Part shown: in pieces, positions 2,324-61,214 of the stretch
How positions within the stretch are numbered: the first letter of the stretch is position 1
How the letters are laid out: each line of letters begins with the position of its first letter
NCBI GenBank assembly: GCA_032718865.1
Contig: JALUTQ010000033.1
Location: forward strand, 1,116,001 to 1,180,000
Direction: 5' to 3'
DNA: 64,000 bases
DNA from: Tilletia caries
Lineage: Eukaryota > Basidiomycota > Exobasidiomycetes > Tilletiales > Tilletiaceae
Position numbers and translations under genes: made by a program
The notes under the pieces: generated by a model
Told to the model about the DNA's origin: nothing
What the model saw: the letters and a program-made list of their open reading frames with translations, nothing else
Database searches by the model: none

Positions 2324-3399
2324 GACACCAGTAACAAATATGAATAGAAAGCGAAATTGGATTGCGATAGTGAGCCATAGCATACAGGCACTAGGCAGGG
2401 AAAAGAGAGGTCAGTCGACCGAGACGCCTCCGCCCTCAAGTAAATACCCTCCCAGCCCCCGTGTCTTGAACCGCCCACCGTAGACCGTCGCGCTTCTGAA
2501 AAGGAGGATTGAAAGTATCAGCAAGAAGCGAAAGTTGGCACTTGGGACTTTGGGAGGGAAAAACTCACTGACTGGGGCTTGATGATTGAAGAAACCGCAA
2601 TCCGACTCTGAAGAGGTAAGTCATACTCACCTTCGAACAGGTAGTATGCTAGAAAGGCGAGAAGCGCAAAGTAGTCAGTGTGCATGCGCTCGTCAGATGT
2701 CGACGTCCGACGAAGACAAGCTACTCACACTATCCTCGCAACCGGCGCGCATCGCCCACTCCCATGTAGGGGCTGCCAAGGAGGGAAGGAGGAAAGGGAC
2801 AAAGAAGTCAGACTGGAGCAGATGCTAGAGAGGAACACGAAGCAGAGGCAAGAACGAACCAACGCGGACTGATAAAAGGGCGATGTTGAGCTGCAGAGGG
2901 AGATCAGAGAGGGGATTGACACGAGAGGAAGAATAGGGCCTATAGGAGAGGATGGGGAATATGTTGGTCAGCGGTGCGAGCGGAAGATAGAGACAGCGGC
3001 CTGTATGCTCACGATTAGCGTCTGATATCTGCCGCGAATGAGGTTCGGAAGCTGTGAGACAGTGAGTGAGTGAAGAGGATGAACAAGAAGTCAGACCAGG
3101 GCAAGAATGGGAGAAGATCAAGAAGCAAAGACATACCATGCATCTGGTAGTATAGTTGCTGCTCTGCTGCTGTGGGGATGATGATGTCGATGACAAGCGC
3201 GAAAGAATGCAGAAGAGGGGATGAAGAAGCACTCACTGTGACCTTGCTGCTGTTGTGCTGATGCTGCTGTTGTGCGGAAGTGGCGTGTGTGAGGATGTGG
3301 TGGTGGAGAAGAAGGAGACGTCGGTTCAGAGGGGGAAAGGGGCGAGGCAGAGAGGTCAGTGCGAATGAAGAATTAATGAGGGGCTCGAGCGCATCGGAA
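2324..3399. other. Sequence flanking the DUF6589-RecQ element; no supported gene
   Basis: Overlapping open frames on both strands show no domain. This is the pre-insertion neighbourhood of the 3410-10267 element: joined to 10278 onward, it would be one continuous stretch of unidentified DNA. Confidence 0.4.
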
Positions 3400-3409
3400 G
3401 CGCCGAACT

Positions 3410-3466
3410 TAGTCTGGTCACACCAGACCACTCCAGTCAGCTGTACGTGGTCTGGGGACACTCGAC
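3410..3466 (+). repeat. Left terminal inverted repeat and subterminal motif
   Basis: The tip contains the perfect hairpin GTCTGGTCACACCAGAC (7-bp arms, 3-base loop). The subterminal copy of GTCTGGGGACACTCGA lies about 40 bp in. The inverted counterpart is at 10190-10267. Confidence 0.8.
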
Positions 3467-3557
3467 CCGATTTTATTAGTATCTGGACAACCCCAAATGT
3501 ACTACTATCACCATATCCCCATGCTTCACACCTGAACCAACACGCATCCTCACAAAC

Positions 3558-6500
3558 ATGACGCCCCAAGCAGAGCACCCTCGGTGAGTATAATGCACAC
3601 ACGTTCAGACAGACATGTTGCGACGGTGCAGCGGCTTGCTACTGTGCTGGAAGCGAGGAAGGTGACAACCGCAGTTTCGTCCATTGGCGGGTCTATACTC
3701 TATAGAATTACTGACAGCCATTGTTCCTTCCTTGTTGCACAGAATTACGCGGCTCGAGAAGACAGAAGCTGTTCATGCGGCTATGGTGGAGGTCGGTCTA
3801 TCCTTCTCCGACTTTTTGGAGGAGTTCCTCACCACCAAGGCCAGTAGCTTGCAGCGCATTCGGTCAATCTGGCTTTCCTACCGCTCCGATCGTCAATACG
3901 GACCTCTACGCCTCGTTCAGCTGCTTAGCGAGGCCGTGCGCAGTGCTGGAGACGATGGAGCACTCGCGTACGACAAAGGGGTTGCATCTATCCTCTCCGA
4001 CACCATCGCTGACGAAAAGGACCAGGCCTCCCACGTACCCGGATTTCGATCTTCCGACTTTCTGAAAGATTCGTCGGCATCTGAAACGAATCAACTTCGA
4101 TACCTGAGCACGTTGATGGAAGAGCATCTTCCCGTGACGTTATGCGTCGCAGATTGTCTATGCGGAACCATCAACCAAGAAGGCCCTGTCTCTGACGGTC
4201 AAAAGGAAATTGACGGCCACATAACCGAGGACCCCCCGGAACTGTCAGAATCTCGGCAGGTGAGCAAGCTGATTCACGTATCATACAGTCACCACTCACC
4301 AGCTTCCTGACTAAACAGATGTCTTTTGATTCACAGGCTGCCGTTGTCTGCCTCTCACTTGCTCTGAACCTGCGCAGCGAACGAATGAACAGACTGCAGA
4401 CGGTCCTTGGTCTGTTTCTCAGGTTCAAACACACGCCCAAACCAATCCACACGATGCTCCATCGACTCGGACTAGCGACTTGCCCGAAAACCAGCTCTCG
4501 TCACCTGGTCGAATTCAACAAGATCTCTCTTACCAAAGCCAAGACCATGATGCAGAATCCAGAACGAGTCCACACCCTCGTTTACGACAACTTCGACATT
4601 TATGTTCAAGAGTTGTCCAATCGGGTCACATCAGCAACTCGAGTCGTCAACCTTACCTGTCGAATGGTGGTCGAGCTTCCAGAGTCATTTTCCTCCGCAG
4701 ATATATCCACGTCCATCCTATCCACCGTCAACGCTCCGCGAGATTTGAAGGAATCCGAAGTTCTGGGTGATGATGCGTTTTTGACACGCGCTGCGCATCT
4801 GTTCTTGGCCCAAGAGCTGCTCCAATCGAAGCGCGCAGCGAGCGATCCTCAAAGCAAACGTGTGCGGGACACCATTCGACTCCTGCGGGACTACATACGA
4901 GACCTCCGTGACGCTCACCGCGTAGACGAGCTTTCAGCAGCGCGATGGCAGGTAGCTCCGCTTCCATTGATAGAGGCGAACGAAGGGAGCCTTGACGGAA
5001 CTCTGGCTGTGATGGAGGATACTTCAATCATTCTGGGCGTTTACGATGAGGTTGAGATTGCCGACCCTACGGCTGCATCTCAAACGTCTTCCTCCTCACC
5101 AAACCAAACCAGGTGGGACATTCGGCGCTCCAGCGTTTTGCCAAAGGACGGCGTCTTGCTGGTCGTTGGAGATTTAAAGACGCACAGGAATGCCGAGGCA
5201 GCATTGAAGGGACGTAGCCGGCATACTAAAGCTGAAGACAGGTATGAATTTATACATTCAATGTCTGCTCCCTGGCATTTGCACCTTAACTGGGTGTGGG
5301 CGATATTCAAAACACACTTCTCGACATCCAAGGTTGGGTATCAAGCGAGCTTAGAGCGTCTTCGTGACGCGCTCCGTCGAGGCAAGACAGCGCTGCGAGA
5401 GGATGAACCGCTGTACAACGAAGCCTGGGCTTTGATCCAGCATACGTTTAGCGGGTGGATCCGATGCCTGTTTGTTGCACAGCTAGGCAAGCAAAGAAAA
5501 GATTTGGCGACATGGACGCCGTCCAACGCTGATGCGGTTCGCGAGCTCGTAGACGCTGTTCGTAATGCAGCGTTAACGGAACCATCGATATATGCTGCCG
5601 AGCTACTTCAAGACGAGGTCGGGGCGAACGCGCGTCGATTCCTACGCGATGCACTTCTGGCGATAGAGTGGAGCGACGCTTGTCGGACGGGAGACGTTGG
5701 GAGGATGCTGATGGCCCAAAGGTTCCTGGCTGTTGCGTTTGCCGGCGTCGGCAAGCACCAGTACTCGCAGACGTGCCTGGACGAGATCTGGGCCCATAAG
5801 GTACTACCGGTCAAAACATGGCGAACCCTGGCCGCCGCCCGCCTCATCAATCGCTTTGGGGTCCAGAACGGCTTCATCGGCGCCGATCTGTACCAAGAAC
5901 ACTTGAACAAAGAGCTACAGGTCAGTGGGAGGTTAACGACAGAAGAGACCTTTGAGGATGCGGTCGCTCACCTTTCCTTGTATCTCCGATTTCCATTCAG
6001 CGGGTAGATACCAAGCACGGAGCAGCAACGGCGGTTTCGAGACTGCGGGATTGCTTCTCGGCTGTTGCGGAGATTTCGAGGTCCCTGAACGATGCCCATC
6101 CGGAGCTCTTTGACAAGAACGGACGAAGGCTGAAGGATGACGATGGTCATGTCAAGGATGTTGAGCGGGTTAGCAATCTGGCTCAGCAAGACGGACTCTT
6201 CGACGTACATTCGAGTAGATTGTCAAACGAGACATTGGCCGCACGCGTCAGTCGTAAGCCAAAACCAAACGCGGCAGGGGTTCCGACTGGGATGGATTTA
6301 ATCGCCGATCTGCTGCCAACTCAGTGCGGTACCGATGTGCTCGAGAAAGGGTTGAACTACTTGAGAGCGAAGGGACTTCAACAGTGGAAGAACGCAAGAT
6401 CAGCATGGTGTCGATACGAGGCCTTGCTGCGAGAAGGGGGGGTCACAGAGAACCTAGAAACAGATCAGGACGAGGGTCTCGTAGTCGCGACTGAGGAGGA

Positions 6501-6696
6501 CGCGGTTAACGTACCTAGACTTCTGGATTCCGAGCCCGACATTCTCAGCGATGACGCCAGACGAGCCCTAGAAGAGGAACAGATGCATCGGAACTGGTTG
6601 CGCAGGGAGGAAGAAGCTGAAGCTGAATTAGCGCTGGTGGACGAAGATATCACAGGGGATGGTGGTGAAGAAGGATCGATGGTGAGACAGGAGTAA
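3558..6696 (+). CDS. DUF6589-family protein, candidate transposase of the element
   Basis: Model: exons 3558-3583, 3743-4259, 4319-5920, 6001-6696, with GTGAGT/GTGAGC/GTCAGT donors and AG acceptors; phases agree and give 946 aa. Exon 3 could instead start at 4337 (next CAG), removing six residues. Motifs I associate with DUF6589 are present in order: a helical region beginning at AAVVCLSLALNLRSERMNRL, LVYDNFDIY (near 4588), VVGDLKTHRN (near 5161) and PWHLHLNWVWAIF (near 5270). The C-terminal about 100 residues are acidic and coiled-coil-like. DUF6589 has no established function that I know of; spaced invariant Asp residues (YDN, GDLKT) would be compatible with an RNase H-like nuclease, but this is inference. 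No frameshift or stop was seen, so it looks intact. Confidence 0.75.
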
Positions 6697-6761
6697 TCGT
6701 AACTCACCTCTGCGTTTGCGTTGATGTGTAGGTCCGCACAAGGCTGCTGAATGAACGAAGC

Positions 6762-9228
6762 TCATGCCTTAGATACCCATCCGTTTCGGGTTAGTCGTGC
6801 GGCAATGGGAAGGGTGAGACTGAGCGTAGCCCACTCCAACAGGGCAGGCAGCAACGCAATGGTATGTTCCTCTGACATGCCGGAAGAATGGCCAAGCAGA
6901 GATCGTATGTAAGAGTCGTCGATGCCCTCCTTGAACACGGCACGTGCGAGTAAGCGGGGTGCTCTGTCGATCAAGCCGCCCATCGTTTCGTCTGGCATCA
7001 CAGATCGCTCCGTCTGCCACTCACGCACGCCGGAGCGGCTTTTGTATACGTTCCTCCTCCAAACAAACAAAGCTCTTCCCAAGCTGCGACAAAGCTCGAC
7101 AGTATCGGAATGGGCAGGTGGAGCAGTCAGACGGCCCACGGCAGTAGAAACGCCGACATCGATTGGCAATCGTTCGACAGTGTTGCTGTCGTGGCACTGG
7201 GAGCAGCAAGTGGGATTAGTGCCCTCCATTGTGCCTAGATCCGTGGTATAGCCAGCGCTCGGAGTTCTCCTCCAGTAGAAGGACGACAGTGTGTCTTCGA
7301 TTGGCCCATCACCGATAGATTCGGTGCTGACTGATGGAGGTGTCGGATTGTGCGGCTCGGCGGTCTGAATCACAGGTTTGAAATCCAGCCAAAGAAGATC
7401 CGTGATTGCGACCCGCAAACATCCCGGAGTAGAAAGCCATGTCGTGAGTTGGGTGTCGAGGTTGCTCCACTGCTGCTGCAGATGAGGAGTCAGACTGGAT
7501 GCCGGTGGCGCAGACTCCGGCGACGCTTCGTGCGCTCGCCGAGCTTTGTAAAAATTCCGACATCGTTCGACCCAGTCAGGACACAGCAGGAGCGCCGCTG
7601 CGCGCGATCCTGGGCCGCGAGCTCCACGTCCGAAGTGCTGGACCAGTCCTCGAAAGTCCTTCGGCAGCTCCCACTGGATGATCATATCTACGTCGGGTAA
7701 ATCGATACCCATTCCGAGAGCCTCTGTGGCAAAGACGACTCGTATCGATCCTGAACGTAGGCCGGCCATCGTTTTTCGCTTCTCGTATGCGGAGTCCATA
7801 GCCGTGAACGAAGCAACCTGGTCCCTCAGCGATTCCGGGAGATGTTGTCGAAGTAGCTCCGCAGCCATCGTAGCCTTACTCCGTGAATTGACGTATATGA
7901 TCGTCTTTGGTAGCACGTTGGAACCATCCCTCGGTTGGAGTATCGTAAGCAGATCGTGGAACGATGAAGCCGCATGCCGAAAAGGCTGAATGTCGTACGT
8001 GCACCCGTCTCGTTCTTTACCGACATCCAGCGCAAAGAAGGGCAACCGACCGAACTGTAGTGCTGAGCAAATCGAAGGCAGGGATGGTCCACTCAGCGTA
8101 GCTGACATGGCGAGTAGAGGAACGTTGGCGTTGAGCTTGGCCCGCAATAAACCGAGCTTGCCGAATTCCGGCCTGAAGGCCGCCCTTCCGGAGCCTGAGG
8201 CGATTCCCCAGTCGTACACGAGGTGTGCTTCATCCACGACAACGGCACGCAAGTCTCTGGCCCACATGCTCTCGCTGACGGCTTTGCCAACCCTGGTATT
8301 GTGGAACAGAACTTCGGGCGACAGAAAGACAACTTGCGCGGTGTTGTTCTCGATCTCTTGTATGGGATTGAATGCGCGCTCCTTTGACCCTCGGCCATGT
8401 ATAAGCCTGCGCCGGGGACACTGCAAATGGTAAAAGATCACATCGGTCAACACGTCTGGCCTTAGCCCTACGCCCCAACGCGCTGATTTATCCCGTTCAA
8501 TGGACTGACCTCTGCACCGAGAGTGTCGGCGTTGAGCGCGACTGCCGATATACCCAGCTCATGCAAAATGTTGGTCTGGTGAATCATAAGTGTGAAGGTC
8601 TTCAGAACATATGTATGCAAGACAGAATGAATCGCGTTTATGTATCCTACCTGCTCCAACTGGATCTCTTTGAGTCCAGTGATAACCAAAAAATTGGCCT
8701 TGGGAAGACGAAGAAGAAGGGAGGCGAAGACCCAGATCATACTCTTGCCTGATCCCGTCCCCGCAGCAACGACTCCATCCATGCCGCCGAGCAAACGATA
8801 GACCGCCTCAACCTGCCATGGCTTCGGCTCGAATGGAAAATCACGCGTGCCCATGGCAGCGCGCACCCTCTCAATCAATATGTGTCTGGGAGGTAGCACA
8901 TCTCGCTCCTTCCCAGACAGGCGAGGTCGCACTCGAGTTGTATTGGGTCCTGTGTTGTGGAAGGGAAAAGAAAGGTAACCAGAAAAAATCTGTAAATGAG
9001 TAGCCGGCAACAGTCCACATAATCACACATCGAAAGCAACTCACTTTTGCGTTTGCTGGCGCGTGTCTCAATGCCATGTGAGGCAGACGCGGCGGAAACT
9101 GGTTCATTGTGACGGCTGGTGAATGCGGTTGGCGTGGGGGTGTTCAAGGAGAGGGATGCGGCCGTTTGGTCGGTCGGCGACGGCTGCGCATTGCGCGAAC
9201 CAAAAGAACCGTGCCAGAGCGCGCACAA
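6762..9228 (-). CDS. RecQ-like DEAH-box helicase carried by the element
   Basis: Model on the minus strand: exons 9228-9045, 8949-8651, 8575-8510, 8420-6762, all junctions in phase, 735 aa. Helicase motifs are in order: Q-like region FPFEPKPWQVEAVYRLL, Walker A AGTGSGKS, VVVDEAHLVYDWG (motif II), LAMSATL (III), TIIYVNSRSKA (IV), VVFATEALGMGIDLPDVD (V) and LVQHFGRGARG (VI). The spacing and the motif V/VI wording match the RecQ/TLH-type superfamily 2 group. The C-terminal 250 residues contain two CxxC pairs that may bind zinc. The 5' end is uncertain: the frame at 9228 has no ATG, so a further upstream exon or a start near 9110 in another frame is possible. It ends 65 bp from the DUF6589 gene, tail to tail, inside the same TIRs. 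Likely role: DNA unwinding or repair during transposition (inference). Confidence 0.8.
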
Positions 9229-10189
9229 AGCCTCTGCGCCAATCCTTTCTTCATTCGAGATGTGAAGATCACTGTATAAGTGTGATCAAAGTAGCAAGCA
9301 TATGTAAATTGTCAGCATTTATGCCCTGAAGTCTGCTCAACTCGAGTCTCAGTCATAAGATGCATCATGCTCACATTTCCATGTCCTCCACTTGATCTGA
9401 TCCCTGCCGAGCATTGATTGGCCCAACACCGGGCTCCGGCGAAGAAATCCGACGTCTCTGGGCGATGAGAATAAGGTAAAAGATCACAGTCAGATATTAG
9501 CCGCGTGCGATTCAAGCTCTGGCCTCTGACGCTATTCACGGTGCGCACCTTTGAACCACAAGGAGATGATTCATATCCGATGTCGACGCAGGCAGGCGCG
9601 ACGATTTCGGCAGCGGGAGATGGGCGCTGAGGATTGGCTGATGCTGGATGAGGTCCGTTGTCCAAGACCGCGAACGGAACGCGACTCGGTCTTGAGCATG
9701 GTACAGCATGGCCTGGCATGTCTGAGGGAGAAGTAAAGTGGCGCATCATGCACGTATCAGTTCCGTATGTAGGCCAATGCAATAGCGCGGGGACGGGAAG
9801 CTCACTGGTACTCCAGGGGATGGTGAAAGAATATTGAATCGTACCGGGTAGTCGAGTGGTCGTGCTGGCGTGCAATAGGCGTGCGGGCTAGAGGATGAAG
9901 AGATGATAGGGAATGGGGAGGCATGAGCACACGACCGCAGAACAATCAGCTTGATATACCGTACAGCAGAAGACGGATGATGGAGGAACTCACAGCTGCG
10001 CACAAGGTCGTGATACAGTGAACAGCAAGCCGTAAGCTGTGGAAGCGCGTTTGCAGCGGGCGCGCCGCGCGAATGAGCTGCTTGCATGACGTGCAGGGGA
10101 TCCGTGCGTCTTGTGGTGTATGGGAATCGAAATGAGACGTTGGAGGGGACAAGTTGGGCCCCCCATTAGTGGGAGATCCAGCCAAAACT
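9229..10189. other. Right arm of the DUF6589-RecQ element, upstream of the helicase
   Basis: This should hold the helicase promoter and perhaps further 5' exons. A 187-residue minus-strand frame (9312-9875) exists but shows no domain. Nothing else is supported. Confidence 0.4.
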
Positions 10190-10267
10190 GCCTCGAGTGT
10201 CCCCAGACCGTCTCCACGGGATCTGTCCCTCATCACGTGCGAGCGACGGTTTGGTGTGACCAGACTA
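10190..10267 (-). repeat. Right terminal inverted repeat and subterminal motif
   Basis: This mirrors the left end: TCGAGTGTCCCCAGAC at 10191-10206 and TGGTGTGACCAGACTA at 10252-10267, followed directly by the TSD copy. Confidence 0.8.
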
Positions 10268-10583
10268 GCGCCGAACTGGCGGAGCTTGGGCCATGCTGGT
10301 GCAGGATGCCGGATGCGGTGGACGAGGAAGATCGTGTGAGGACGGCCGATGGAGAGGAGAAGGCCAGGCACAGTGCTGCTGCTGCTGTGCGCTGGCGATG
10401 CGAGACGAGGCAGTAAGTCCCAGGGTGGTTGTCATGCTGATTTGCTCCGGGGACAGTCGACTCACCGATGCTGCTGGGAAGGCTTTGTATGCTGGGCCAT
10501 CCAGGGACCATGAGGATGCTCCCAGGATGATTTGCCTCCACAACGGTCCAAGGATGATCGGCAGAAAACGTTCATAATACATT

Positions 10584-10800
10584 AGGGCAATTCACGCGTG
10601 CCACCCAACGCCGCTCATCCCATCTCAAACCCGCTCGATCCCACTCATTTCAAACTTCAGCGAGAGTGAGCGAGCGTGTCTGAGAGGGTCGTTTTGTACG
10701 ACTTCACTCACTCCCATCCACTTCTCTTCGCTCCCATCCACTTCCAAAACCGCTTGATCCCACTCAGACAGTTCTCAAGCGAGCTTGATCTCAGGACTTA
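10584..10800 (+). repeat. Harbinger left TIR and subterminal repeats
   Basis: After the TIR, related motifs recur: CGCTCGATCCCACTCA at about 10630 and CGCTTGATCCCACTCA at about 10751, with CTCCCATCCACTTC twice between them. Subterminal repeats of this kind often serve as transposase or Myb-protein binding sites (inference). Confidence 0.55.
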
Positions 10801-12181
10801 TCAAATTGCGTTGCAGCGAAGCAAATCGGTAATAGCCAGTAATAGCAAAAATACAGCAGCGATCAGGAGGTCAGGGTACGCTTGAGCTGGGGCCTGGGGC
10901 CTGGGGGTTTACGGCCATACCAATGAGCCAGGGTCCCCGTCCCCCAAGAACCAAGACCATGGGTTGATTGTGAGGAACTTAGCAGGAGGGTCACAACTCA
11001 CAGATGCAGATCACAGGCCACAGCCCGCCAGGCATCAGCCCATTGACATACCAATGCGATTAGGCCCAAGCTCCCAGCAAATGGGAGAGAGGGTTGCGGT
11101 TATGATCGACCTGGACACCTGGTTGCCGTTTCAGTCTGATGTTACCTACATGTGAGAAAATGGAAGAGCTAAGGGTGTGAGTGCGTGGCCGTGTTAGCTG
11201 TGAGATGACTGGTAGAGGGTTAGGGAGGATTCGAACCCGATGTGTGATGCCGCGGGAGAGAGGGTTAGGGAGGGAGAGGATAACCGGGCACTTGCCTTAA
11301 ATATCCTCGGGTCAAGGGGGGGGATTCTCTCCGATGGGCGATGATCATAAATCATGATTGATGAGCGCATGTTTGCTCAATTGTTCGTGTGATGATCTGC
11401 AGAACATGGATGTTCCCCAGACTTTAGTATGGGGTTATATCTGCCCCTTAGATCTTACGGCCGAGACGAATGTTGCAACATCGCTCGAATAAAATCTTTC
11501 AAAACTTCTTGAAATCTTCTCAAACTTCGCCTGGGTGTCCGTGTTCTAAGCATCCATCGACGCTCTCGATTTCTCCCAGTTTTATTTATGAAGATAGCAA
11601 TTTGCTGTTCACATGCCGTCCTTCCGCCGTTCGTTGCCCGTTTCTGTCTCTCGTCCACCTCCACTTTTTACACGCCTTCGATAGCCGTAGTCAAAAGTCA
11701 AAACCCTCCGAGGAAGTTCATAGCCATAGTCAAAACTCAAAACCCTCCGAGAATGTTGAAAGGTCTTCAACTTTTTGACGAACGCATTACGCAGCTACCA
11801 AGTACCAACTGCACAACTTACTCCAGCGTTCACTAACCTTCAACTCTGACCTACCTACGACTTGTCTTGAGATACACGCAAACATCTACCAGGTGAATGG
11901 TGATGGTGCCCCAAAAATCAAAATGCTACTGACTACTGAGTACTGACTACTGGTACTGACTACTGACTACTGACTAGGATTATTGAGGTCTGACTGTCTG
12001 AGTGCTGATATTCTTACGTTCTTTTTTATTCCGATTTTATTCTTGCTGCTGGTAGATGGTAGTCCGGGGTCCTGATCAGCTTCATCGCTTCTATTTTAAT
12101 CTCCTACGTTCTACCGGACTTGGCCTTACAATATTGACCCATTGTCATATGCATTCATGCTGCATGCTGCATGCATCATCG
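10801..12181. other. Non-coding left arm of the Harbinger element
   Basis: No gene is supported. A short microsatellite-like run of GACTACT units occurs at about 11935-11980. One tRNA-like B-box (GATTCGAACCC near 11228) was examined and not accepted as a tRNA gene. Confidence 0.4.
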
Positions 12182-12189
12182 CGGGCAGC

Positions 12190-12723
12190 CAGAGGTCGGC
12201 GTGGGTATGGGTACATCTTGGGTATACCCACCATACCTGACCTGTACCCACCTTATACCCATCTGAATGTTCTCCCTGGTATACGCAGGTATAACTTGGG
12301 TATACGCAGGTATATCTTGGGTACACGTAGGTATATTCTGGGTATACGCAGGTATAATCTGGGTATGCACAGGGTATTCCAGGTATACACAGAGTCTTGC
12401 TTGGGTACACTTGCATTACTTGAGTATAATTATGAAATGCAGGGTATTAGGTATACCTAGGCACAAGTGTACAATCTGGGTATGTGTACAAAAGAGGTCA
12501 GAAGCCAGACAAGATGGGTATACCTAGGTATACCCAGGTTCAACGCAGGTAAACGTAGGTAAATACAATCTAAAAAAGGCAAAAAAAAACGGTTGATTAC
12601 ATAAGCAGGTATACCTTGAGTATACCCTCGGGTATGGGTATAGGTCTCGTCGGGAAAAGGGTATACCCTCGGGTATGGGTATGGGACCCCAGATACCCAA
12701 TACCTAACCCATGCCGACCTCTG
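12190..12723. mobile_element. hAT-like MITE with GGGTATACCC-type interior
   Basis: The ends read CAGAGGTCGGCGTGGGTA (left) and, reverse-complemented, CAGAGGTCGGCATGGGTT (right). The flanking 8 bases are identical: CGGGCAGC at 12182-12189 and 12724-12731. An 8-bp TSD and a CAGAG tip fit hAT elements. The 534-bp interior is made almost entirely of GGTATAC / GGGTATACCC variants in both orientations and codes for nothing recognisable. Confidence 0.85.
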
Positions 12724-12849
12724 CGGGCAGCATTGCTTATGTTCTGACTTCTCAGAACCCTCTTGCAAGAACGAATGCACTCACACACTGAGCGCCATTC
12801 TATCCGATGGATGAGATACTGATCTGCTCATCAGCTTATCTGCGCATGG

Positions 12850-13720
12850 GCTCATCCGCTCATCATATACGTCATGTGTGACAACTCACGGCGGAGAGCT
12901 CGAAGGGTAGCGAAGCTACCCTGAGAGCGAGGCGCGGAGGGCGTCTATGTCATTTGGATGATTGACTGTGGCCCGTGGGTCACCTATCAGGCATTCAGGT
13001 ACGTACATAGACATGTCACTTTACAACTTTGGGGAGATCTATCTCCTATCTGCTCATCAATTATGTTGTGTGGAAAATCATGGCGGAGAGCTCGAAGGGT
13101 AGCGAAGCTACCCTGAGAGCGAGGCGCGGAGGGCGTCTATGTCATTTGGATGATTGACTGTGGCCCGTGGGTCACCTATCAGGCATTCAGGTACGTACAT
13201 AGACATGTCACTTTACAACTTTGGGGAGATCTATCTCCTATCTGCTCATCAATTATGTTGTGTGGAAAATCATGGCGGAGAGCTCGAAGGGTAGCGAAGC
13301 TACCCTGAGAGCGAGGCGCGGAGGGCGTCTATGTCATTTGGATGATTGACTGTGGCCCGTGGGTCACCTATCAGGCATTCAGGTACGTACATAGACATGT
13401 CACTTTACAACTTTGGGGAGATCTATCTCCTATCTGCTCATCAATTATGTTGTGTGGAAAATCATGGCGGAGAGCTCGAAGGGTAGCGAAGCTACCCTGA
13501 GAGCGAGGCGCGATAGGCGTCAGTCTATATTGATTTATCAACTGTGGCCTGTGGGCACCGATCATTACGCAATACACATGTTCCGTTACACCTTTTGGGA
13601 GTTCTATCTGCTCATCATCTATGGTGTGTGGAAAATCATGGCGGAGAGCTCGAAGGGTAGCGAAGCTACCCTGAGAGCGAGGCGCGGAGGGCGTCTATGT
13701 CATTTGGATGATTGACTGTG
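12850..13720 (+). repeat. 192-bp tandem repeat array
   Basis: The motif GCGGAGAGCTCGAAGGGTAG starts at 12891, 13083, 13275, 13467 and 13641, giving three spacings of exactly 192 bp and one of 174 bp. The internal units look identical by eye; the last is diverged after the core. Each unit contains the inverted repeat GTAGCGAAGCTAC. It lies inside the Harbinger element and has no coding content that I recognise. Confidence 0.9.
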
Positions 13721-15033
13721 TTAAGTGCTTCTGGACCATTGTTTGGGTATGCCATCCACATCTGACAGGTCACAGCATTGAGCACGTTTTTTGAGAATTC
13801 GAGTCTCAGATATTCAGACCCAGCATTAAGCAACATCAGTCCTCAAGCGTGCAGTCTCTTGCTACTTTTCATCTCCCGTTCATGTTCTAATTTCTATAAA
13901 ATCATGGCCTCAAAAAGTCTGGGGAACACTCTGGCTCAAAAGCCAGGCCGGTGGGATGTAATAATGGAGACGCACATAGATCAGAATAAATGCTGATAGC
14001 CATGCATCCAGTCTTAGGCAGCAGCAAACACATGTACTCACCAGTCACCGAGTGGCCCTGGCCACAGTTCACACATCGTAACCTGAGATGCAGGGAAGCT
14101 GGCCAACGAAGATAAAACAGCGTATGAAAGAACTTCAGCATTCAGCAGTGGTGCTCGGTCGCGATCAGATAGATGGCAGCGGGAAAGTCTCACATTGTCA
14201 AAGCCGCAACTCTCGAGAGCGGTCAGCGGACGACTGGTGAACGCGGGACGATGAATAATCTGAGAAGGCTGGGTGAGAGTGAGGGAAGATTAAGGATGCA
14301 GTCAACAAGTGTTAGAGGTTATAATAGCTCAGGGGCTACGGGCCTACGGCCCACGCCGGACACTGGACAGTAATCAGTCGCCTACTCACCAATAAGCAGT
14401 CACCACTCACCACATCTGAGATGACTCAGGACCGCGCTTGTCGTCCTCAAGGCTCAAGGCTCAAGACAAAGCAGCACTCAAGGCTCAAGGCAAAGAAGCA
14501 GAGGATCTTCGGTACAATACTGGAAGTCGGAAAGTGATGACTGGTGATAGAGTTAGCAAACTACGAGTCTACGACGGAGTAAGAGGGTGACTGCGGCATC
14601 ATGATGCTACTTCACCTTAGGACTGGAGACGTCTCCCATGGGGGTTAGGTGAGCGGTACTGGAGGGGACGGAAGAAGAATGAGAGGAAAAAAAGAATATG
14701 GTGGTGGTGCGTCCAAAGAGAGGGGTCATCGAGAAGCCGAGAAGGACAGCAGGGCCGCAGGGGAAATGAAACTGCACCTATCACGCAATCCGGACAATGG
14801 TATCTGAAGGCAAAGAGAAGGGAGAAATGAGAATTGCCCGTGGCGGAAGGGCTCGGTCAGTTGATTCATGATTGGACGCGTGGCCTGTCCTGAACGCCTG
14901 CGCCCGAGCTCAGAAGGGTAAGCAGCAGCCTGTAGCCTGCGCGCACCTTAGTCCCTTGACCGTTGAAGCAACCGACAAGTTTCAGCAACGCAACGGCACA
15001 TATCGAAAGCACCAAGACTCACGCAGTTTCGGT
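13721..15033. other. Harbinger interior upstream of the Myb-like gene
   Basis: No supported gene. A short run of AAGGCTCAAGGC-like units lies near 14450-14490. The promoter of the downstream Myb-like gene should be here; I see no clear element. Confidence 0.4.
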
Positions 15034-44269: not shown

Positions 44270-47135
44270 ATGCTGACAGGGTGTATGGAACCGTACGTTG
44301 GTGATGAGAAGAAGCGGAAGTAAGGAGCAGGATGGCACAAATGAAGTGCCGAAAGAGTATCCGATGGTAAACGGATGTCAGCTGCAGTAACATCGGATGC
44401 CATCTGATCATCACCCGTTCACATCCGATGAGGTCCGATGAAAGTCGGGTGCGGAGGGCTGCCACGTGAGTGGCAGCCACGCGCCGAAAAATTGATTACA
44501 TAAGCGGATGACATCCGAGTGACATCGGATCTGGTGGATGTGGATGTGGATGAGGGCAAAATTTCTGGTCGGATGTGGGTGTGGATGTGGATGAGGACCC
44601 CCTCTCATCCGATTTCTCATCCATGCCGACCACTGCTTATACCCCGCACCGAGTTCCCTAGCGAGGTAATCGCTAACCACGCCGCTTGACTTCTTTGGAT
44701 GGCTCGCGCACGCTGCTCTTTGAACAACAACTTCTGGTCGAGGAGGACCCCCAAAAGCTCGACCGTCGGCTGAGATGGTATGATTTGCTCGCCGAGGTGG
44801 AGTGGCTCATCTGCATCCTCTCCGGGAAAACGGGTGAGGAGTGCGTAATGAGTTTTGTTGAGATCGAGAAGAGTGCCGTGTGACTTCTGCCAGGCCTCCA
44901 TCACCGGCGCTATCCGGCTGAGCTGGCTCCTCACTTCCTCTGCGGTCGTTCCTGAAGCTAGCACCCCCACGTCATCAATGTACCCCGTGGCTGTGAAGTC
45001 TGGGCCGAGGTCTGAGATCGCATCGATGAGGGGGGCGTTGTAGAAGAGTGACAGCAGTGGGGAAAGAGAGGACCCTTGTGGGCACCCGTCTTTGCGATGT
45101 CGTGGTCGGCAGGTCTGTCCGCCGAGCGAGTAGCGGACATATCGATTGTGATGCCAGGACTTGATCACCGCCACAAAGTTGGCTGGGACCCCCGCCATCC
45201 TAAGGTTGTGGCACAGGTGAGCGTTTCTCATACTCGGGAACGCCGCTTTGGAGTCGAGAGAGAGGAGACCGCAAACGCGGCCCCTTCTCCATTCGTGGTG
45301 AATTCGCTCGGTGATGCTGATGAGGGCGTCCGATGTGGACCGACCTGGTCGTCCCCCGAAGTGCTGATCGGGAAGAAGATGTTGCTTCTCCGCGAGGAAA
45401 GACAGTCTAGCGGCAAGCGCAGAGTCCCAGATGAGACCCAGCCTGCTGATCAGGTCGATAGGTCTCCATGCGCTTGGGACCGCATAATCTGGCCTCTTTG
45501 ATTTCTTGAGGACGAGGGTGATCGACTGCTTGAAGGGTGCGGGGTAATGACCGATCTTCATTCCCGCCGCCACGATTGCTGCGAATGTCGGCGAGGTGAT
45601 GGGCCATATTCGCTTTATCAGCGGTACGGTGAATCCATGGTGGTCCGCTGCCTTGCCGCTCTGCATCCGGTCCAGTGCTGCTGCCAGGTGCTCCTCCCTG
45701 ATCTGGAGGTTGGGGTGAGGTTGAGGGTACTGGGTATCGGGGATGTCGGAGAGATCGGCGTCGGCGCTGGCTTGGGTAAATGCTTGATGAAAGGCGTCTG
45801 CTTGGGATTCTGGGTCGGTGAGGGTGTTTCCGTCTGCTTTGATGGGAGGGATGAATTTGTCGAAGGACTGTCCGTTCAGCTTGTATCTTGCTGCTGTCCA
45901 AACTGTGTGTTCATCGAGGGAGGAGAGGAACTCCTCCCAGTGTTGTTCTTTTTGGTGGTTCATGTAGTTGGTGTAATCTGCTCGGGCTCTTGTCCATTTG
46001 TGTGCTCTTTGTATATCTTTTTCTGAGGCCCTGTTTCTTGTCTTTTTTTGCTTTTTGTCTTTGTCTTCTTGAGCATTCTTTTCTGAGTTTTGTGAGTTTG
46101 GTGTTCCACCATCGCTTGGTACTTGGGCCGATGTCGGCGGTGGGGACGTGTTTGTTGATGATATCTGCGATGGTGTCGATGAGGGATTGTGCTGCGTGGT
46201 CTAAGTGTCTGCGTTGGAGGGAGGGGGAGGAGTGGGTTGATTGGGAGAATTTGGTATTTATGTGGGGGATTTTTTCTTGGAGGGAGGAGTTGATGCTGTC
46301 CCAGTCGGCCTTGTCCCAACTGCGAGGTGGGCGCGGCTGCTGGGACAAGGGGAGGAAGCCGAGGGTTCGATGAGTGATGGCTCGGTGGTCTGAGACATGA
46401 TCGTGCTGCCCGTTGGAGTCTGTGCAAGGCCCGGCGACTGTATAACTGTGCCCACTGTAACTGTAGGTACGTTGACTTAATAAGTCATAACTGTAACTAT
46501 ACTGTAGGCGGCGGAGCCGGAAGAAAAATTAAGTTGACTGTAACTGTAGGGCCCGGGTACAGTCAACTTAACAGTTGATTAAGTTGGAATTTATTCGGGC
46601 CCCAAACTGTTCAAACTTACTATGACTATAAATCACTGTTTAAGTTGAACAAAACTACTGGCAGCCACTTTCAGTTTGAGAAAGCACTTACAGCCACTGA
46701 CAGCCGCGTACAGTTACTTACAGTTACTTCACACCTACTTGAGTCAAATCTCATTTCCTTGGCGAAAACACTTGTCATACTGGGTGAGGTTGAATGGAGT
46801 CTTCTTGGCCGGAGGCTGGACAGCCTCGGTCATGATAGCGTGGAGCGACTGAGGTGAGGAGTGCGGAATGCTGCTGGATGCGTTGTGGATGGGCGATGGC
46901 GATGGTGAGGCGTTGGGTAGGTGGACGGTGTGAAGAGGTGAAAGGGCTGAGCGGCGAGGTTCCGTGAGAACTGAAAACTGCGGGAACTGTAAAAGTCACA
47001 GTTGCAGTCACTTTCAAGGACTGTTAGGTGACAATTTTGAAGGGCAAAACTGTGACTTAAAATACTTTTTAAGTTACAGTTATGTGACACAATAAGTTTT
47101 TAAGTTACAGTTACTTTGAGACTTTGTCTACAGTA

Positions 47136-49205
47136 CTCGGGCCCAATGGTTGTCGGTTACATTCTCCAATTTTTTTAGTAAACAAAAAAAGCCCTCTCCA
47201 CAGGAGAGGGCCTCCAAGCTCAATGAGGAAGACAAGCTCAATGAAGAAAGCAAATATTTACATTCCTTGAGTCCGTCGTCGAGACCATCCTCGTCCTCAT
47301 CATCACCGACGCAATACACAAAACATCAACAATCAACAAACATGAAGTACAAAGAAGAAGAAGACCTTATACTGGACGCAGGGAAGAAGCGCAAGCAATC
47401 GTAGCAGCTGGGGAGACCAAGCTCAACTTGTCAGCACTCGCCAAGAAATACAAGATCGATGTCCAGCGCTTGAGTCGTCGTTATGGTGGTGGAGAAAGCA
47501 GATCAACACGCGCGCCTACAAACAAAAAGCTTACGGAGCTGCAAGAGAAGGCATTGCTGGAGTACATAGCAGTTTTGGATCGTCTCGAAATTTCAGCAAG
47601 AATGTCCCTAATTCAGGCGTCTGCAAATCAGCTGCTTCGCGATGCGCATCAGGACAGCAATACATCGCCGCCCGTTGTAGGCAAGAATTGGGTCAAGAAC
47701 TTCATGAAACGTTATCCGCAGGTACACAGGATCAAACAGAAGCCGCGGGAGATCTCCAGGATGACTCAGGATCGTGAAAATCTCTCCTGGTGGTTCAAGA
47801 AATTGGAGAACGTCGTCAAGAAGCAGGGCATCCTCCCGAAAGACATTTGGAACGTCGATGAAATAGGATTCCGCATTGGTATCGGCAAAAGTCAGTGGAT
47901 CCTCACACTGTGTCCCTCTCGCGACGCTCATCTGGCCAGCGAAACGAATCGAGAGTCGTTGACGTGCATCGAGGCAGTCAGCGCGTTCGGTGCCCACATT
48001 TCGCCCATGGTCATCATGTCTGCAAATCAACACACGGAAGGATGGTTCGAGAATGATCTTTCTGGCGATACTCTCTTTGCGGTCTCAGAGAAGGGGTACA
48101 CGGACGACGTCCTTGCTCTGAAATGGATCAAGCACTTCGAGGAGCGCACAAAGGCAATGACAAAAGGATCGAAGCGTATCTTGATCTTCGATGGACATGG
48201 ATCGCACTGCACCAAGCAGTTTCTGGAACACTGCGAGGCGAATGCGATTGTGCCCTTCAGTCTTCCTCCTCACTCGTCGCACATCCTTCAGCCTCTGGAT
48301 GTTTCGGTATTTCAACCCTACAAACATTGGCACAAGGAGGCCATTGATGCGGCTACGCGTACAGGATGCACGAATTTCAACAGGGTCGAGTTTCTCTCTG
48401 CACTGGCTTCGATTAGGAAACAAACAATGAAAAACAAACACAATCAAGACGGGTTTCAGGCGCACTGGTATCCACCCTTTCAATCCAGACATCGTGTTGT
48501 CAACGTTTGCGGCGCCGGTCGACTTCTCCGCTGCTGTTGCTGAGGAACCCGTTCCGAGTACTCCTGCCCAGTCCTCCTCGCCTCCGGCCACCCCTCAAAC
48601 CATTCGAACACTCTCTCGCAGTGCAAACAAAATTCAGGAGAGGTATGGATCTGATCTCTCTCCGACTCTGGCGAAGTACATTCGAGGTTCCTTGCAGCAA
48701 GTGCACACTGGAAGCTTGGCGATTGAGGCTCTCGAGAAGCAGACCGCAGCACAACAAGAAAGAAACAAAAAGAATGAAAGGGCTCGGAAGGTAGTGCAGT
48801 CAGGTGGAGTTTTGTATGCGAGGGAGGCGAGGGAGATTGCTCAAGACAAGTTGGATCAAGAGACGAAGGAGGAGGAGCGACGAGAATGGGTGAAATTCAA
48901 GAAGGAGGTCAAGAAGCGGAAGGCGGAAGGTTGGCACAAGATACACGTCCAGGCTCGACGAGAAGTCAAGCGGCGTCGCAGGATTGCGGACAAGGAGCAA
49001 GATTACGCAGACGATGAGCGGGAGGTTGTTGATGTTGACGAGGAATGAGGAATGTGTCTCGACGACGGACTCAAGGAATGTAAATATTTGCTTTCTTCAT
49101 TGAGCTTGTCTTCCTCATTGAGCTTGGAGGCCCTCTCCTGTGGAGAGGGCTTTTTTTGTTTACTAAAAAAATTGGAGAATGTAACCGACAACCATTGGGC
49201 CCGAG
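47136..49205 (+). mobile_element. pogo/Tigger-type Tc1-mariner element with perfect 150-bp TIRs
   Basis: The TIRs at 47136-47285 and 49056-49205 are identical over 150 bp by eye, beginning CTCGGGCCCAATGG. The dinucleotide TA flanks both ends (47134-47135, 49206-49207). The only gene is a DDE_1/CENP-B-type transposase. Confidence 0.93.
47341..49048 (+). pseudogene. pogo-like transposase with two frameshifts
   Basis: The ATG at 47341 enters an A/G-rich run and must shift one base near 47360 to reach the conserved helix-turn-helix frame (REEAQAIVAAGETKLNLSAL). A CENP-B-type second HTH follows (VVGKNWVKNFMKRYPQ), then the DDE_1 domain with IWNVDEIGFRIG, ILIFDGHGSHCTKQF and PPHSSHILQPLDVSVFQPY, supplying the three Asp residues. 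A second one-base shift near 48477 separates HWYPP from the expected FNPDIVLSTFAAP. The last about 180 residues are basic and coiled-coil-like. The stop is 7 bp before the right TIR. Expected activity: TA-targeted cut and paste. The two shifts may be real or sequence errors. Confidence 0.8.
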
Positions 49206-56053: not shown

Positions 56054-56849
56054 TAAGGTTGTCCCCGGAGTAACGCGGAGGGCTCCGCCTCCGCACTTCC
56101 AAATTCCGCCGGAATTTTGACTTTTTGAGGCGAGCTCCGCCTCCGCAGACTAAGACAGAGCTGAAAAAACTCAGCTCCGCGTTCCGACGGAATTATACAA
56201 AAGTTGAAATCCCAGCTCCGCGCTCCGCGTTTTTTTCTGTGCGTTTTTCATAATGCTCCTCCGTGCTCCGTGTATGCGGAGCTCGGAATTCCGCGGAATT
56301 CCGTCGGAGCGCAGTGGTGGTATAATTTGCTCTCAGAATGACTCTAACACAATCAGAGCTATACATTCACCATCCGACATTGTTGCGGTATTGACTCCAG
56401 TGCTATTCTGAAGCTCTCAACGGATGATGATGCCTGTTTTTATCTCCTGCGCGTGTCTCGGCGATGCCTATTTTTCTCGGAATTCCGCACATTTCCGCGG
56501 AACTTGGACGGAATTCCGGCGGAGCGCACCCAAAATAAGGTCACGTGACCCCTATTTTCGACGATCACGTGACCTCACAGCTCCGACGGAATTCCGCGGA
56601 AATTCCGCCGGAATTTTTCGCACAATTTTTGACGACTCCGCGCTCCGTACTTTTTGACTAGTGGGCCCAGGATTGGGCTCCGCGCTCCGCGTAAATTCCG
56701 GCGGAGTCCTCCAGGCGGACTCCGTGCTTTTTTAAGGTCAAAAATCTCTCAAAAGTGAGCTCCGCGCTCCGCCTCCGGCGGAGCCCTCCGTCGGAGGAGT
56801 ACGGAGTCCGCAAAACCCCAGCTCCGCGTCAACTCCGGGGACAACCTTA
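56054..56849. mobile_element. hAT-like MITE, TAAGGTTGTCC family, copy 2
   Basis: Same 18-bp TIRs as copy 1 (41086-41873). The 8-bp TSD ATCCAGGC is at 56046-56053 and 56850-56857. Same orientation as copy 1 on the plus strand. It is inserted in the Gag region of a Copia element with identical LTRs. Confidence 0.93.
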
Positions 56850-59800
56850 ATCCAGGCTGCCATCCGAACGAAGGAGCACGAGCTCAACGGCGACGACTCC
56901 GAACGTGGCGAGGACGTGGACGAGATCAGCATGACAGCAAAGGAGCTTTGGGCGTACCTCAAGGAGGAGTACGCATCGTCCTCGGTCGCCGCCCAGATTC
57001 GCATCCGTCGCTCCCTCGCGGACGAGCTCGCCAACCCGAAGCCGGTGATGCGAGACCACATTGCCGCTGTAAGCAACTGGTACATGCAGCTCGTCGAGAC
57101 CGGAGACTCGGTCAAGGAGGCGTTTCGATGCGGTGAACTGCTTGCCAGCCTTCCCGACGCCTTCCAGCCATGGGTCGCCGGACAATCCAACGCCCAGAAG
57201 TGGGGAGTCCTGCGCCTCGGTATCCTCGAAGAAGAACGACGGCTCAAAGCCGTTGAGGATCGCGCATCCAAGAAGAAGGTCGAGACGGCGTTCGCGGTGG
57301 GTCCCGCTCCGGTGACCCAGACAGGAAACAGCAGCAACAGGGGGAGCTATGGCTCCCAAGGCAGCAGAGAACGCGGAGGATCCTGGCGAGGAGGCGGACG
57401 AGGCGGATACGGTTCGGGATTCCGAGGAGGATACGGGTCGAGATTCAGCGCGTTCCAGGGCCATTGCCACATCTGCCGCAAGCACGGTCACAGGGCCGTC
57501 GACTGCCGCCACTACGAGAAGTACTGCAAGTGGCAGGAAGACTCCGGATTCGCGGACGAAGCACCTCGCGAGCACGTTGCCGTGGCTCGAGACCCGAACG
57601 CATCGTCGGAACAGGATGACCTCGCCAACTTCGAGTTCGAGATCTGCTTTGCGGTCGGGACCACACTCGCCGCATCCAACAAGATCATCCTCGACACAGC
57701 GAGGCGAGCGAGCTCCAGGCACATCGTCACCGACCGCGCAAAACTTCAAGACTACCGCCCAGCAGCTCCTGGTGCGGGAATCGATTGCGCCAATGGTACA
57801 AAGATGAAGATTGCAGGCTACGGGACCATGGCGGTGATCACAAGCGAGGGCATCACGATGAAACTCACGGACGTCTTCCACTGCCCGACGGCCATCGGAA
57901 ACCTCGTCGGTGGGAAGCTCTTGACGCAAGCTGGTTGTGAAATCGCATTCACCAACAGCGCTGCGCGGGTCATCAAGGCGGAGGACGGGGAGCTGGTCAT
58001 GAAGGCAGAAGTCCAAGGGGGCATATGGACGGTCGAGCTCATCCCGCTTCGAGAGGTGGTCGCGCTCGTCAAGGCCCAAGTAAAGGTCGACCCAGTCGCG
58101 GTCAAGGTCCACAACGGATGGGCACACCTCAGCATGCCCACCTTGCGCGCTGCTGCCGCTGCCGGGCTCATCCCCGGGCTCAAGAAGGCACTCGGAGACA
58201 TCGGGTTCTGTGAGGCATGCGCGCAAGGTAAGATGCATCACACCCCCCCCCATGAACGCGTCTTGAGCGACGACAGAGCGCAACGGGCACTTGAACTGAT
58301 ACATTCGGACATCTTTGGCCCCACTCGGATGAAGGATGCACTTGCGCTGGGCGGCTATAGGTTCGGGCTCGTCATTGTCGACGACTTCACCAAGTTCGTC
58401 TGGATTATCCCACTACGATTCAAATCGGACGCAATCGAGGCGCTCAAGACCTTTCATCGAAACATGTCAAGCCATTATTCCAACCTACGTATCAGCCGGG
58501 TGCGCACAGATAATGCGCTGGAATTCAAAGCATCGGAATTACAGCATTATTGGGACAGCAATGGTGTGAAGCATGAGTTGGCGCCGCGGTACTCGCCGCA
58601 AAGTAATGGGGTGGCAGAGAGGAATGTCCGGACGATCACAGAAATGACACGGACCATGTTGATTGCCGCCAAGCTCCCATTCTTCTTCTGGCCAGCCGCA
58701 GCAGGTTATGCGGCACATATCAAGAATCGAGTGACCGCAGCAAGTCTCTCGGATGAGACGACACCGTTCGAGGAGCTCAACGGCAGGAAGCCGCCGCCGC
58801 AATCCTTCAAGCCTTTCGGCTGCACAGCGTGGGCCATGAAGCCCAGCACAGAACGAGACGGCAAGTTCGACGCAAAGTCGCGGCCCTGCGTATACCTTGG
58901 CCCAGCGTTCAAGGGAGCTTCGAAGCTCTGGGACCCGGTCGCGAACAAAGAGCTGGTCGACCACTCCGTCACGTTTGACGAGGACAACACCGCCAGTCGG
59001 CTCCTCCACGACCATCAGCTCCAGTCAGGGCAAGCCGTCCCGTCCTTCGGTTTCCTGAATGACGAAGATGAGTTGCAGGGGCAGCGTCAACAAGGTAACC
59101 AGCAACCGCAGCAGCTCCAACCACACCCGGTTCCGCAGACTCACCAACAGGGACCACAGCCGCCCGCCTTGCAACAGGCCATGCAGGACGCGCTGCGAAG
59201 CAGAGTTGTGCCGTCCGACATCTTGCCTTCGGTAACGACGATCGCGGATGGCGGGCAGGTGTCCCGAGACGCCCTCGCGACCGTGGCAAGACGATTGGCG
59301 GCATAGAACAAGGAGGGGCAGCTCATGGCGGGCAGAGGAAGCGTGCGAGCGGATGGGGGACCGGAAGTGGCGGTGGAGCGACGGAGGGAGGCTGCTCCGG
59401 CGCAGCAGGAAAGGTCGTCAGGTGACAGAGGGAGTAGTGCGCAGGAGGGTCGTAGGAGTGGTCAGCTGGCAGGGAAGGAGTCGGCATTTGGGATGTTGAC
59501 CGAGGATGGTAGTAGGAAGCGGAAGGAACCTGGGGACCCCGAAAGAGGAGGGTGTTACGCAGTCTTGGAACCCGAGGAGATGTCATTCGGGGACCCAAGA
59601 ACGGTGAGGGAGGCGATGGAGCGTCCGGACAAGGAGAAGTGGCTGGAGGCGATGCACGTCGAAGTGCGATCTCATATCAACCGAGCGACCTGGAGGGTGG
59701 TCAAGGCGTATGGGAAGGCAAATCTCATCAGCTCAAAGTGGGTTTTTGTTCTGAAAAAGAATGCTGACGGGTCTATTCAAAAGTACAAGGCAAGACTCGT

Positions 59801-61200
59801 GGCTCGAGGATTCACACAGGTTGAAGGCGTCGACTTTGACGAGACCTTCGCCCCCACCTCAAGGCTTCAAAACATGCGACTCCTCTGTGCCATGGCAGCA
59901 GCTCTGGGCCTCGACATCCATCAAATCGATTACAAGACGGCGTACCTCAACGCCGGCCTCAAGAACCAGATCTACATGCTCCCGCCAGATGGGATGGACC
60001 TGCTCGGACACGATTTCCTCCCAGACGATGCTCTCGAGCTAATGCTCGCTCTATACGGTCTAAAGCAGTCCGGGCACGAGTGGCATCAGGTCTTGAAGGA
60101 GGCGCTCAGCAAGATCGGTTTCTGCCCCAGCAATATCGACCCCACAATGTTCGTTCGAGACGGAGAAGCCCCAGCTATCCTGTTGGTGTACGTTGACGAC
60201 ATCCTGGTCTTAGCACCTCCCGGAGGCGCAGTCGAATCGCTCAAGAAAGAGCTACTCACCCTCTTCAAAGGCACCGACCTTGAACCAGCACATCACTGCC
60301 TCGGGATCCAAATCGTCCAAGACAAGGAGAAGGGTACGATAACAATCGATCAAGAACGGTACGCAGAGGAGGTTTTGGCGCGCTTTGGGTTCTCTACGTC
60401 AAACCCCACATCGACCCCACTTTGCTCGAAGAAGGCGCTGCGAAAGGCCACCGAAGGAGACCTCCGGTGCGACCCTTCCATCTATCGAGCCATTGTCGGC
60501 TGTCTGGCGTACCTCGCACAAGGTACCCGGCCGGACCTCGCTTTCGCGGTCAGCACCCTCGGCAAGTTCAGTTCGGATCCGACAGAGGAGCATATGGAGG
60601 CGGCGAAGCGCGTTCTCCGATACATTCGAGGGACGGCCGGAGCGAAGTTGACGTTCGGAGGGGACAGGAGTGAGGAAGAGGTGGAAGGGTACGTCGATGC
60701 AGATTGGGCTGCCGACCGGGACGACCGGAGATCGACGTCGGGCTTCGTGTACACGATGGCGGGAGGTGCCGTATCGTGGGGTTCACGCAAGCAGGGTGCG
60801 GTTGCGTTGTCGACAGCGGAGGCTGAGTACGTGGCAGCTGGGGTGGCAGGAAGGGAAGCGTTATTGCTGGGTGGGGCACTGGCAGCAGCAGGCAAGGAGC
60901 TTGGTACGGTTACGATCAATTGCGACAACCAGGCAGCTATACAATTGGTCAACAACCCTGGATCCCATCACGACAGGAGCAAGCACATCGACATCGTTCA
61001 TCACTGGATCCGTGACAAGGCCCAACAAGGAGCATTCGCCTTTCAATACGTCCCGACAGACCTCAACCCTGCGGACGCCTTTACCAAAGCCCTCGGACAG
61101 ATCAAGCACCGGAAGCATGCGGAGGCAATTGAGATGACTCTGGCATTGGGGGCATGGTCGCTGGGCTCAGAGGGAGTAGGGAATGTCGATACAGTGAGCG

Positions 61201-61214
61201 GCGCTGAGAGGGGG
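61201..61214 (+). promoter_or_regulatory. Copia polypurine tract
   Basis: The run GAGAGGGGG lies directly upstream of the 3' LTR, where second-strand synthesis should be primed. Confidence 0.7.

What the first reader, a model, noticed from the sequence alone, without database searches (positions are those of the whole stretch)
3400..10277. A TIR-bounded transposon made of a DUF6589 gene and a RecQ-like helicase
The unit has inverted ends (TAGTCTGGTCACACCA), a second inverted subterminal motif, and a perfect 10-bp TSD (GCGCCGAACT). Its only recognisable genes are an intact-looking DUF6589 protein and an SF2 RecQ/TLH-like helicase, tail to tail 65 bp apart. DUF6589 is a family of unknown function; finding it between TIRs suggests it is the transposase of an unnamed superfamily with a helicase as accessory or replication factor. 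RecQ in a cut-and-paste-type element would be unusual. TIR, TSD and genes are seen directly; transposase function is inference.
Basis: partly seen in the sequence, partly recalled or inferred. Interest (0 to 1): 0.92.

Follow-up and report, generated by a model that had tools for sequence, protein, structure and literature searches.

The report
AcademH-type transposon with RecQ helicase
This is a complete-looking jumping gene in a wheat-bunt fungus (Tilletia) that carries a protein of a family filed as "unknown function" next to a RecQ helicase; it fits a kind of transposon described in 2020 (AcademH), so it is mainly a clear new example that suggests what the unknown family does.

Summary
That it inserted as a unit is shown: three other places in the same genome hold the target with one GCGCCGAACT and no element. 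Of 24 end pairs read in this lineage, 17 have perfect 10-bp duplications, 1 has 9 bp, 6 have none; in other lineages eight loci gave a duplication, always 9 bp. Of 48 DUF6589 loci, 42 face a helicase match within 6 kb, and the two genes diverged together (r = 0.92). Two Asp and one Glu are invariant wherever covered.

DUF6589 is very probably the transposase, but the superfamily need not be unnamed: RecQ-type helicase, 9-10-bp duplications, TIRs and a fungal host fit AcademH (Kojima 2020). No Academ reference sequence was on hand, and fold prediction was inconclusive. Likely mechanism: DDE cut-and-paste with a 9-10-bp stagger, helped by the element's helicase. New member of a known kind.

The parts
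3400..3409 (.). left target site duplication GCGCCGAACT
   Evidence: single copy in three empty sites
3410..3429 (+). left terminal inverted repeat, 16 bp perfect, 20 bp with 1 mismatch
3449..3465 (+). inverted subterminal motif GGTCTGGGGACACTCGA; a diverged pair (CGGTCTGGACGCACTCGACCC) lies near both ends of the related element L026
3558..3583 (+). DUF6589 gene exon 1 (start codon at 3558)
   Evidence: splice signals read (the script ran exon 1 one base late); start MTPQAEHPRITRLEK identical to the NCBI model P0001
3743..4259 (+). DUF6589 gene exon 2
4337..5920 (+). DUF6589 gene exon 3, most of PF20231; candidate catalytic residues D265 (codon 4586-4588), D460 (5171-5173), E702 (5897-5899); also conserved E397, H495, D698
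6001..6696 (+). DUF6589 gene exon 4 with stop codon
6697..6761 (.). 65-bp gap between the two stop codons (tail to tail)
6762..8558 (-). RecQ-type helicase, main reading frame with stop codon (DEAH box, Helicase_C); first exon base not fixed
8471..9022 (-). RecQ-type helicase, frame with Walker A (AGTGSGKS); exon borders not fixed
8878..9285 (-). open frame in the position of a helicase N-terminus; no Pfam match; tentative
10193..10209 (-). right inverted subterminal motif
10248..10267 (-). right terminal inverted repeat
10268..10277 (.). right target site duplication GCGCCGAACT

Best explanation
An intact-looking, presumably autonomous DNA transposon of the AcademH kind in a Tilletia genome. 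SHOWN: it is a discrete inserted unit (empty sites), it duplicated 10 bp of target, close copies sit at unrelated sites with their own duplications, and short elements share its TIRs. INFERRED: the DUF6589 protein is a DDE (RNase H-fold) transposase that binds the TIR and subterminal motif, cuts the element out and joins its 3' ends to target strands 10 bp apart, the gaps being filled to give the duplication; the element's own RecQ helicase unwinds the ends or the target, or helps finish repair. The short elements would be moved in trans by the same transposase.
For: Three empty sites (C15, C40, C34) join the window's two flanks through a single GCGCCGAACT. A nested case: the L028 element, with 9-bp TSD TGCGACGCG, sits inside an L018-family copy whose uninterrupted counterpart is the right end of L018; that outer copy has its own 9-bp repeat TTTTTTGCT. 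TSDs in the TAGTCTGGTCACACCA lineage: 10 bp in 17, 9 bp in 1, none in 6 of 24 end pairs; other lineages 9 bp in the eight loci where a TIR/TSD pair was found. 42 of 48 DUF6589 loci face a helicase match within 6 kb; the helicase places came from a search that did not use DUF6589. D265 27/27, E397 29/29, D460 28/28, D698 28/28, E702 28/28, H495 27/28 among 29 stretches (27 distinct loci). Transposase and helicase distances correlate over 17 loci, r = 0.921, 0 of 2000 permutations as high; dN/dS 0.12 and 0.15 (DUF6589), 0.18 and 0.21 (helicase) against the related elements L026 and L035. Close copies at C36, C27, C6: helicase 99, 99 and 97% identical. AcademH makes 9/10-bp TSDs; fungal Academ copies carry RecQ-type helicase domains.
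Confidence: 0.87

Rival explanations
1. A superfamily of its own, separate from Academ, that acquired a RecQ helicase independently, as KolobokH did.
For: No DUF6589-Academ link was found in the paper library; no sequence test against Academ was possible; no Pfam transposase family matches any of 13 DUF6589 proteins at E 0.1; RecQ helicases occur in more than one superfamily.
Against: TSD length, helicase type, TIRs and fungal host coincide with AcademH.
Confidence: 0.08
2. A KolobokH or Mutator-like (MULE) element with a helicase.
For: KolobokH of fungi carries RecQ; the MuDR/IS256 group makes TSDs of 4 to 10 bp (passage of PMC10045372).
Against: Kolobok duplicates TTAA, 4 bp, not seen here; no MULE Pfam match in 13 proteins; the conserved His sits in APWH in the window, not in the C/DxxH shared by Kolobok and MuDR.
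Confidence: 0.03
3. A host gene pair (DUF6589 and RecQ) duplicated with flanking repeats by recombination or another machinery, not a transposon of its own.
For: The public relative is annotated as a hypothetical protein; in 10 of 20 other loci no TIR/TSD pair was found.
Against: Empty sites, a fresh TSD at each close copy, TIRs shared with short elements.
Confidence: 0.02

Closest known systems
AcademH (helicase-encoding lineage of the Academ superfamily; Kojima 2020, Mob DNA 11:15; paper not held, known here from its title and from passages of PMC10045372 and PMC10799480)
   Same: Helicase with DEAD/Helicase_C domains, 9- or 10-bp TSDs, reported from Basidiomycota.
   Different: No difference found; transposase homology not tested for lack of a reference sequence.
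Fungal Academ elements with DEAD/DEAH helicase and recQ_fam domain (PMC6416283, passage)
   Same: Academ copies in fungi that carry a RecQ-type helicase and are taken for host genes.
   Different: The passage gives no TSDs and no DUF6589; the word Tilletia does not occur in the main text.
KolobokH (PMC9587614, passages)
   Same: DDE transposon of fungi with a RecQ helicase.
   Different: TTAA 4-bp TSD; RecQ lies downstream of the transposase domain, not on the opposite strand facing it (though one red-alga Kolobok has RecQ on the complementary strand).
AcademX (PMC10045372, passage)
   Same: Same superfamily as AcademH.
   Different: Nuclease instead of helicase and 3-4-bp TSDs.

Membership tests
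AcademH | element encodes a DEAD/Helicase_C (RecQ-type) helicase | tested here: met
   42 of 48 DUF6589 loci face a helicase match within 6 kb
AcademH | 9- or 10-bp target site duplications | tested here: met
   10 bp at the window, confirmed by three empty sites; of 24 pairs 17 have 10 bp, 1 has 9 bp, 6 none; 9 bp in eight loci of other lineages
AcademH | terminal inverted repeats | tested here: met
   16 bp perfect at the window; TAGTC, TAATC or TTGTC termini in the other elements with TSDs (the scan asked for such termini, that did not)
AcademH | DDD/E transposase with catalytic Asp, Asp, Glu on an RNase H fold | tested here: inconclusive
   D265, D460, E702 invariant where covered; fold models poor, matches weak
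AcademH | transposase homologous to Academ reference sequences | not testable with these tools
   no Repbase or Academ profile on hand; Kojima 2020 not held
KolobokH | TTAA 4-bp target site duplication | tested here: not met
MULE/Mutator | Pfam MULE transposase domain (family name from PMC8290104 passage pfam10551) | tested here: not met
   13 of 13 proteins match DUF6589; the only other match at E 0.1 is a weak DUF3446 in one
Zisupton/KDZ | 8-bp target site duplication (PMC12730594 passage) | tested here: not met
   9-10 bp
Helitron | HUH nuclease with helicase (PMC12730594 passage); no TIR, no TSD (recalled) | tested here: not met
   TIR and TSD present; no such Pfam match in the frames scanned

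The most novel reading that the evidence does not exclude
DUF6589 elements are a superfamily of their own, distinct from Academ, in which a RecQ helicase is an obligatory partner of the transposase and the target stagger is set to about one helical turn, 9 or 10 bp by lineage.
Probability: 0.08. Interest if true: 0.72.

Novelty: new member of a known kind. Interest (0 to 1): 0.4.

Why it matters
It gives Pfam DUF6589 (PF20231), filed as unknown, a very likely function: transposase of helicase-bearing Academ elements. Fungal Academ copies are reported to be often annotated as host genes (PMC6416283). The genome holds related lineages with 9-bp and 10-bp duplications and matched transposase-helicase pairs, which makes it possible to ask whether TSD length follows the transposase or the helicase; PMC10045372 suggests that the accessory enzyme matters (AcademH against AcademX).

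Tried and rejected

Viral contigs: 84 pattern matches, no relative. DUF6589 profile against PDB sequences: none at E 1.

KolobokH, MULE, KDZ and Helitron were considered and set aside on TSDs, termini or Pfam (see the membership test). A telomere-linked RecQ origin was considered because telomeric RecQ genes are described in Ustilago maydis (PMC7593156 passages); it was not followed.

TIR/TSD scan of the 20 other DUF6589 loci read at 10 kb: 9 with TIR and TSD (L018, L021, L024, L028, L031, L032, L033, L034, L036), 1 with TIR only (L026), 10 with no convincing pair (L017, L019, L020, L022, L023, L025, L027, L029, L030, L035; L020 gave one 8-bp pair with a mismatch and poor ends, taken as noise). 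L022, L025, L027, L029 and L030 keep matches to the ends of intact relatives, that of L029 short. L032 can also be read with 11 bp if the outer T and A of the ends are counted to the target. The other 27 of the 48 loci were not read whole. For seven of them both ends were asked for (C27:1115427, six): six gave both TIRs, with 10-bp TSDs in each; for C13:496601 the left end was not found.

Paper searches. 'DUF6589' gave 0 papers; 'PF20231' gave one unrelated optics paper; Tilletia with Academ gave 0. The library holds open-licence PMC papers only, so this is no proof of absence elsewhere. Of all papers cited I saw passages, not the whole text.

Full report
WHAT IS THERE. The unit runs from 3410 to 10267 (6,858 bp). 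It begins and ends with TAGTCTGGTCACACCA in inverted orientation (16 bp perfect; 20 bp with one mismatch) and is flanked by GCGCCGAACT at 3400-3409 and 10268-10277. An inverted 17-mer, GGTCTGGGGACACTCGA, lies at 3449-3465 and 10193-10209; a related element, L026, has a diverged form of it near both ends. The plus-strand gene has four exons (3558-3583, 3743-4259, 4337-5920, 6001-6696) encoding 940 residues; its start agrees with a public Tilletia controversa protein (A4X06_0g7974). It matches DUF6589 at 2.2e-51. The minus-strand gene ends 65 bp away and is a RecQ-type helicase: best solved relatives BLM (7.3e-15), RecQ and WRN. The protein searches returned Tilletia only, so the host is a Tilletia, probably T. 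controversa or a close sister (inference); the assembly has 38.1 Mb in 40 contigs.

IT MOVED. I searched the genome with each flank. Besides the window, three places (C15, C40, C34) hold both flanks, and in each the two matches overlap by exactly 10 bases. The sequences show one copy of GCGCCGAACT and no element. This is the classical empty-site test, with paralogous copies of a repeat in place of another strain. A second case lies in L028: an element with 9-bp duplication TGCGACGCG sits inside a copy of the L018 family, and the right end of L018 shows the same sequence uninterrupted; the outer copy has its own 9-bp repeat, TTTTTTGCT.

COPIES. The exact 16-base end is common (all 100 places on the capped list are exact; 374 places within 3 mismatches against 242 for the reversed control). 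I read both ends of 24 units of this lineage (one end of some with one mismatch): the window, 17 pairs, L026 and five. They include all 18 inward-facing pairs under 10 kb among the 100 listed places. Perfect 10-bp duplications: 17. Nine bp: 1 (L031, a close copy at C6). None: 6 (L037, L045, L046, L049, L054/L055, L026). Six of the 18 pairs are only 528-534 bp long, without room for the genes. Close relatives lie at C36, C27 and C6 (helicase 99, 99 and 97% identical), with duplications of 10, 10 and 9 bp of unrelated sequence. In other lineages the ends read TAGTCTC, TAATCAC or TTGTCTC and the duplication is 9 bp in the eight loci where a pair was found (L018, L021, L024, L028, L032, L033, L034, L036). 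A control with the right-hand flank shifted gave no exact 9- or 10-mer in 20 of 21 stretches and 2.5 per shift in L036. So the stagger seems fixed by lineage, at 9 or 10, with L031 as the exception.

THE GENE PAIR. DUF6589 gives 75 exon matches, merged to 48 loci (the tool calls such counts lower bounds). The helicase search, made without DUF6589, gives 70 matches, merged to 58 loci. 43 of 48 DUF6589 loci have a helicase match within 6 kb and 42 of these 43 face it tail to tail; 5 have none; 16 of the 58 helicase loci, host helicases probably among them, have no DUF6589 locus nearby. Protein distances of the two genes over 17 loci (those of 27 stretches with at least 150 codons of each gene, L003 left out; 131 of 136 pairs usable) correlate at r = 0.921, reached by 0 of 2000 permutations: the pair has been inherited as a unit. 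Against L026 and L035 dN/dS is 0.12 and 0.15 for DUF6589 and 0.18 and 0.21 for the helicase, with dS of 1.5-1.85, near saturation. Closer pairs range from 0.11 to 0.80 (DUF6589) and 0.24 to 0.88 (helicase), some on few changes, which fits decay of single copies after insertion but is no evidence of selection by itself.

WHAT KIND. PMC10045372 (passages read) states that AcademH makes 9- or 10-bp TSDs and AcademX 3- or 4-bp ones, and links the difference to helicase against nuclease. PMC6416283 (passages) reports that 81% of fungal Academ copies contain recognisable domains, such as the DEAD/DEAH helicase and recQ_fam. PMC10799480 (passages) says AcademH occurs in Basidiomycota, Ascomycota and Mucoromycota. 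Each feature that I could test fits. The original description (Kojima 2020) is not held, and no Academ sequence was available, so membership by transposase homology remains untested. KolobokH also has RecQ but duplicates TTAA (PMC9587614 passages).

MECHANISM. Shown: insertion as a unit with a 10-bp duplication, many copies, co-inheritance of both genes. Inferred: DDE cleavage at the TIRs, joining across a 10-bp stagger, help from a RecQ helicase in opening DNA or in finishing repair, and mobilisation of the short elements in trans. Whether donor excision leaves a gap (cut-and-paste) or the helicase supports copying was not tested.

VERDICT. The 'unnamed superfamily' reading is not needed. Not found in the library searched are any mention of DUF6589 or PF20231 as a protein family, and any paper naming both Tilletia and Academ.

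Noticed in passing
window 44617-46200 (-), 47245-48543 (+), 56736-61229 (+): Other mobile elements in the window: a reverse transcriptase of the RVT_1 kind, a Tc5/pogo-like DDE_1 transposase, and a copia-type polyprotein in two open stretches of one frame parted by a stop codon.
   Followed up: partly
window 10268-14000: After about 315 bases the right flank turns into several repeat families (about 10583-11413, 11413-12189, 12202-12724 and on), each with several copies elsewhere: a nested transposon region (40 of 240 candidates scored).
   Followed up: partly
window 3250-3409 and 10268-10468: The target of the insertion is itself a repeat with four copies found in the genome (C28, C15, C40, C34).
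   Followed up: yes
L028:304-9061: An L018-family element, with its own 9-bp repeat, interrupted by a second DUF6589 element with a 9-bp TSD.
   Followed up: yes
P0001 (A4X06_0g7974) against window 5240-5449: The public gene model lacks 70 residues that hold the conserved APWHL motif; it looks like a splice-prediction error.
   Followed up: no
L024:5293-8234: A 2.9-kb element with TIRs and a 9-bp TSD, a partial DUF6589 and no helicase match: probably an internal-deletion derivative.
   Followed up: partly
G000:C21:658503-660112: A helicase match of about 31% identity without a DUF6589 locus nearby: an orphan copy or a host gene.
   Followed up: no
window 3423-3455 and L034:1099-1141: In some elements the bases just inside the end form an inverted repeat (CCAGACC ... 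GGTCTGG in the window), as if an end motif were repeated in opposite orientation.
   Followed up: no
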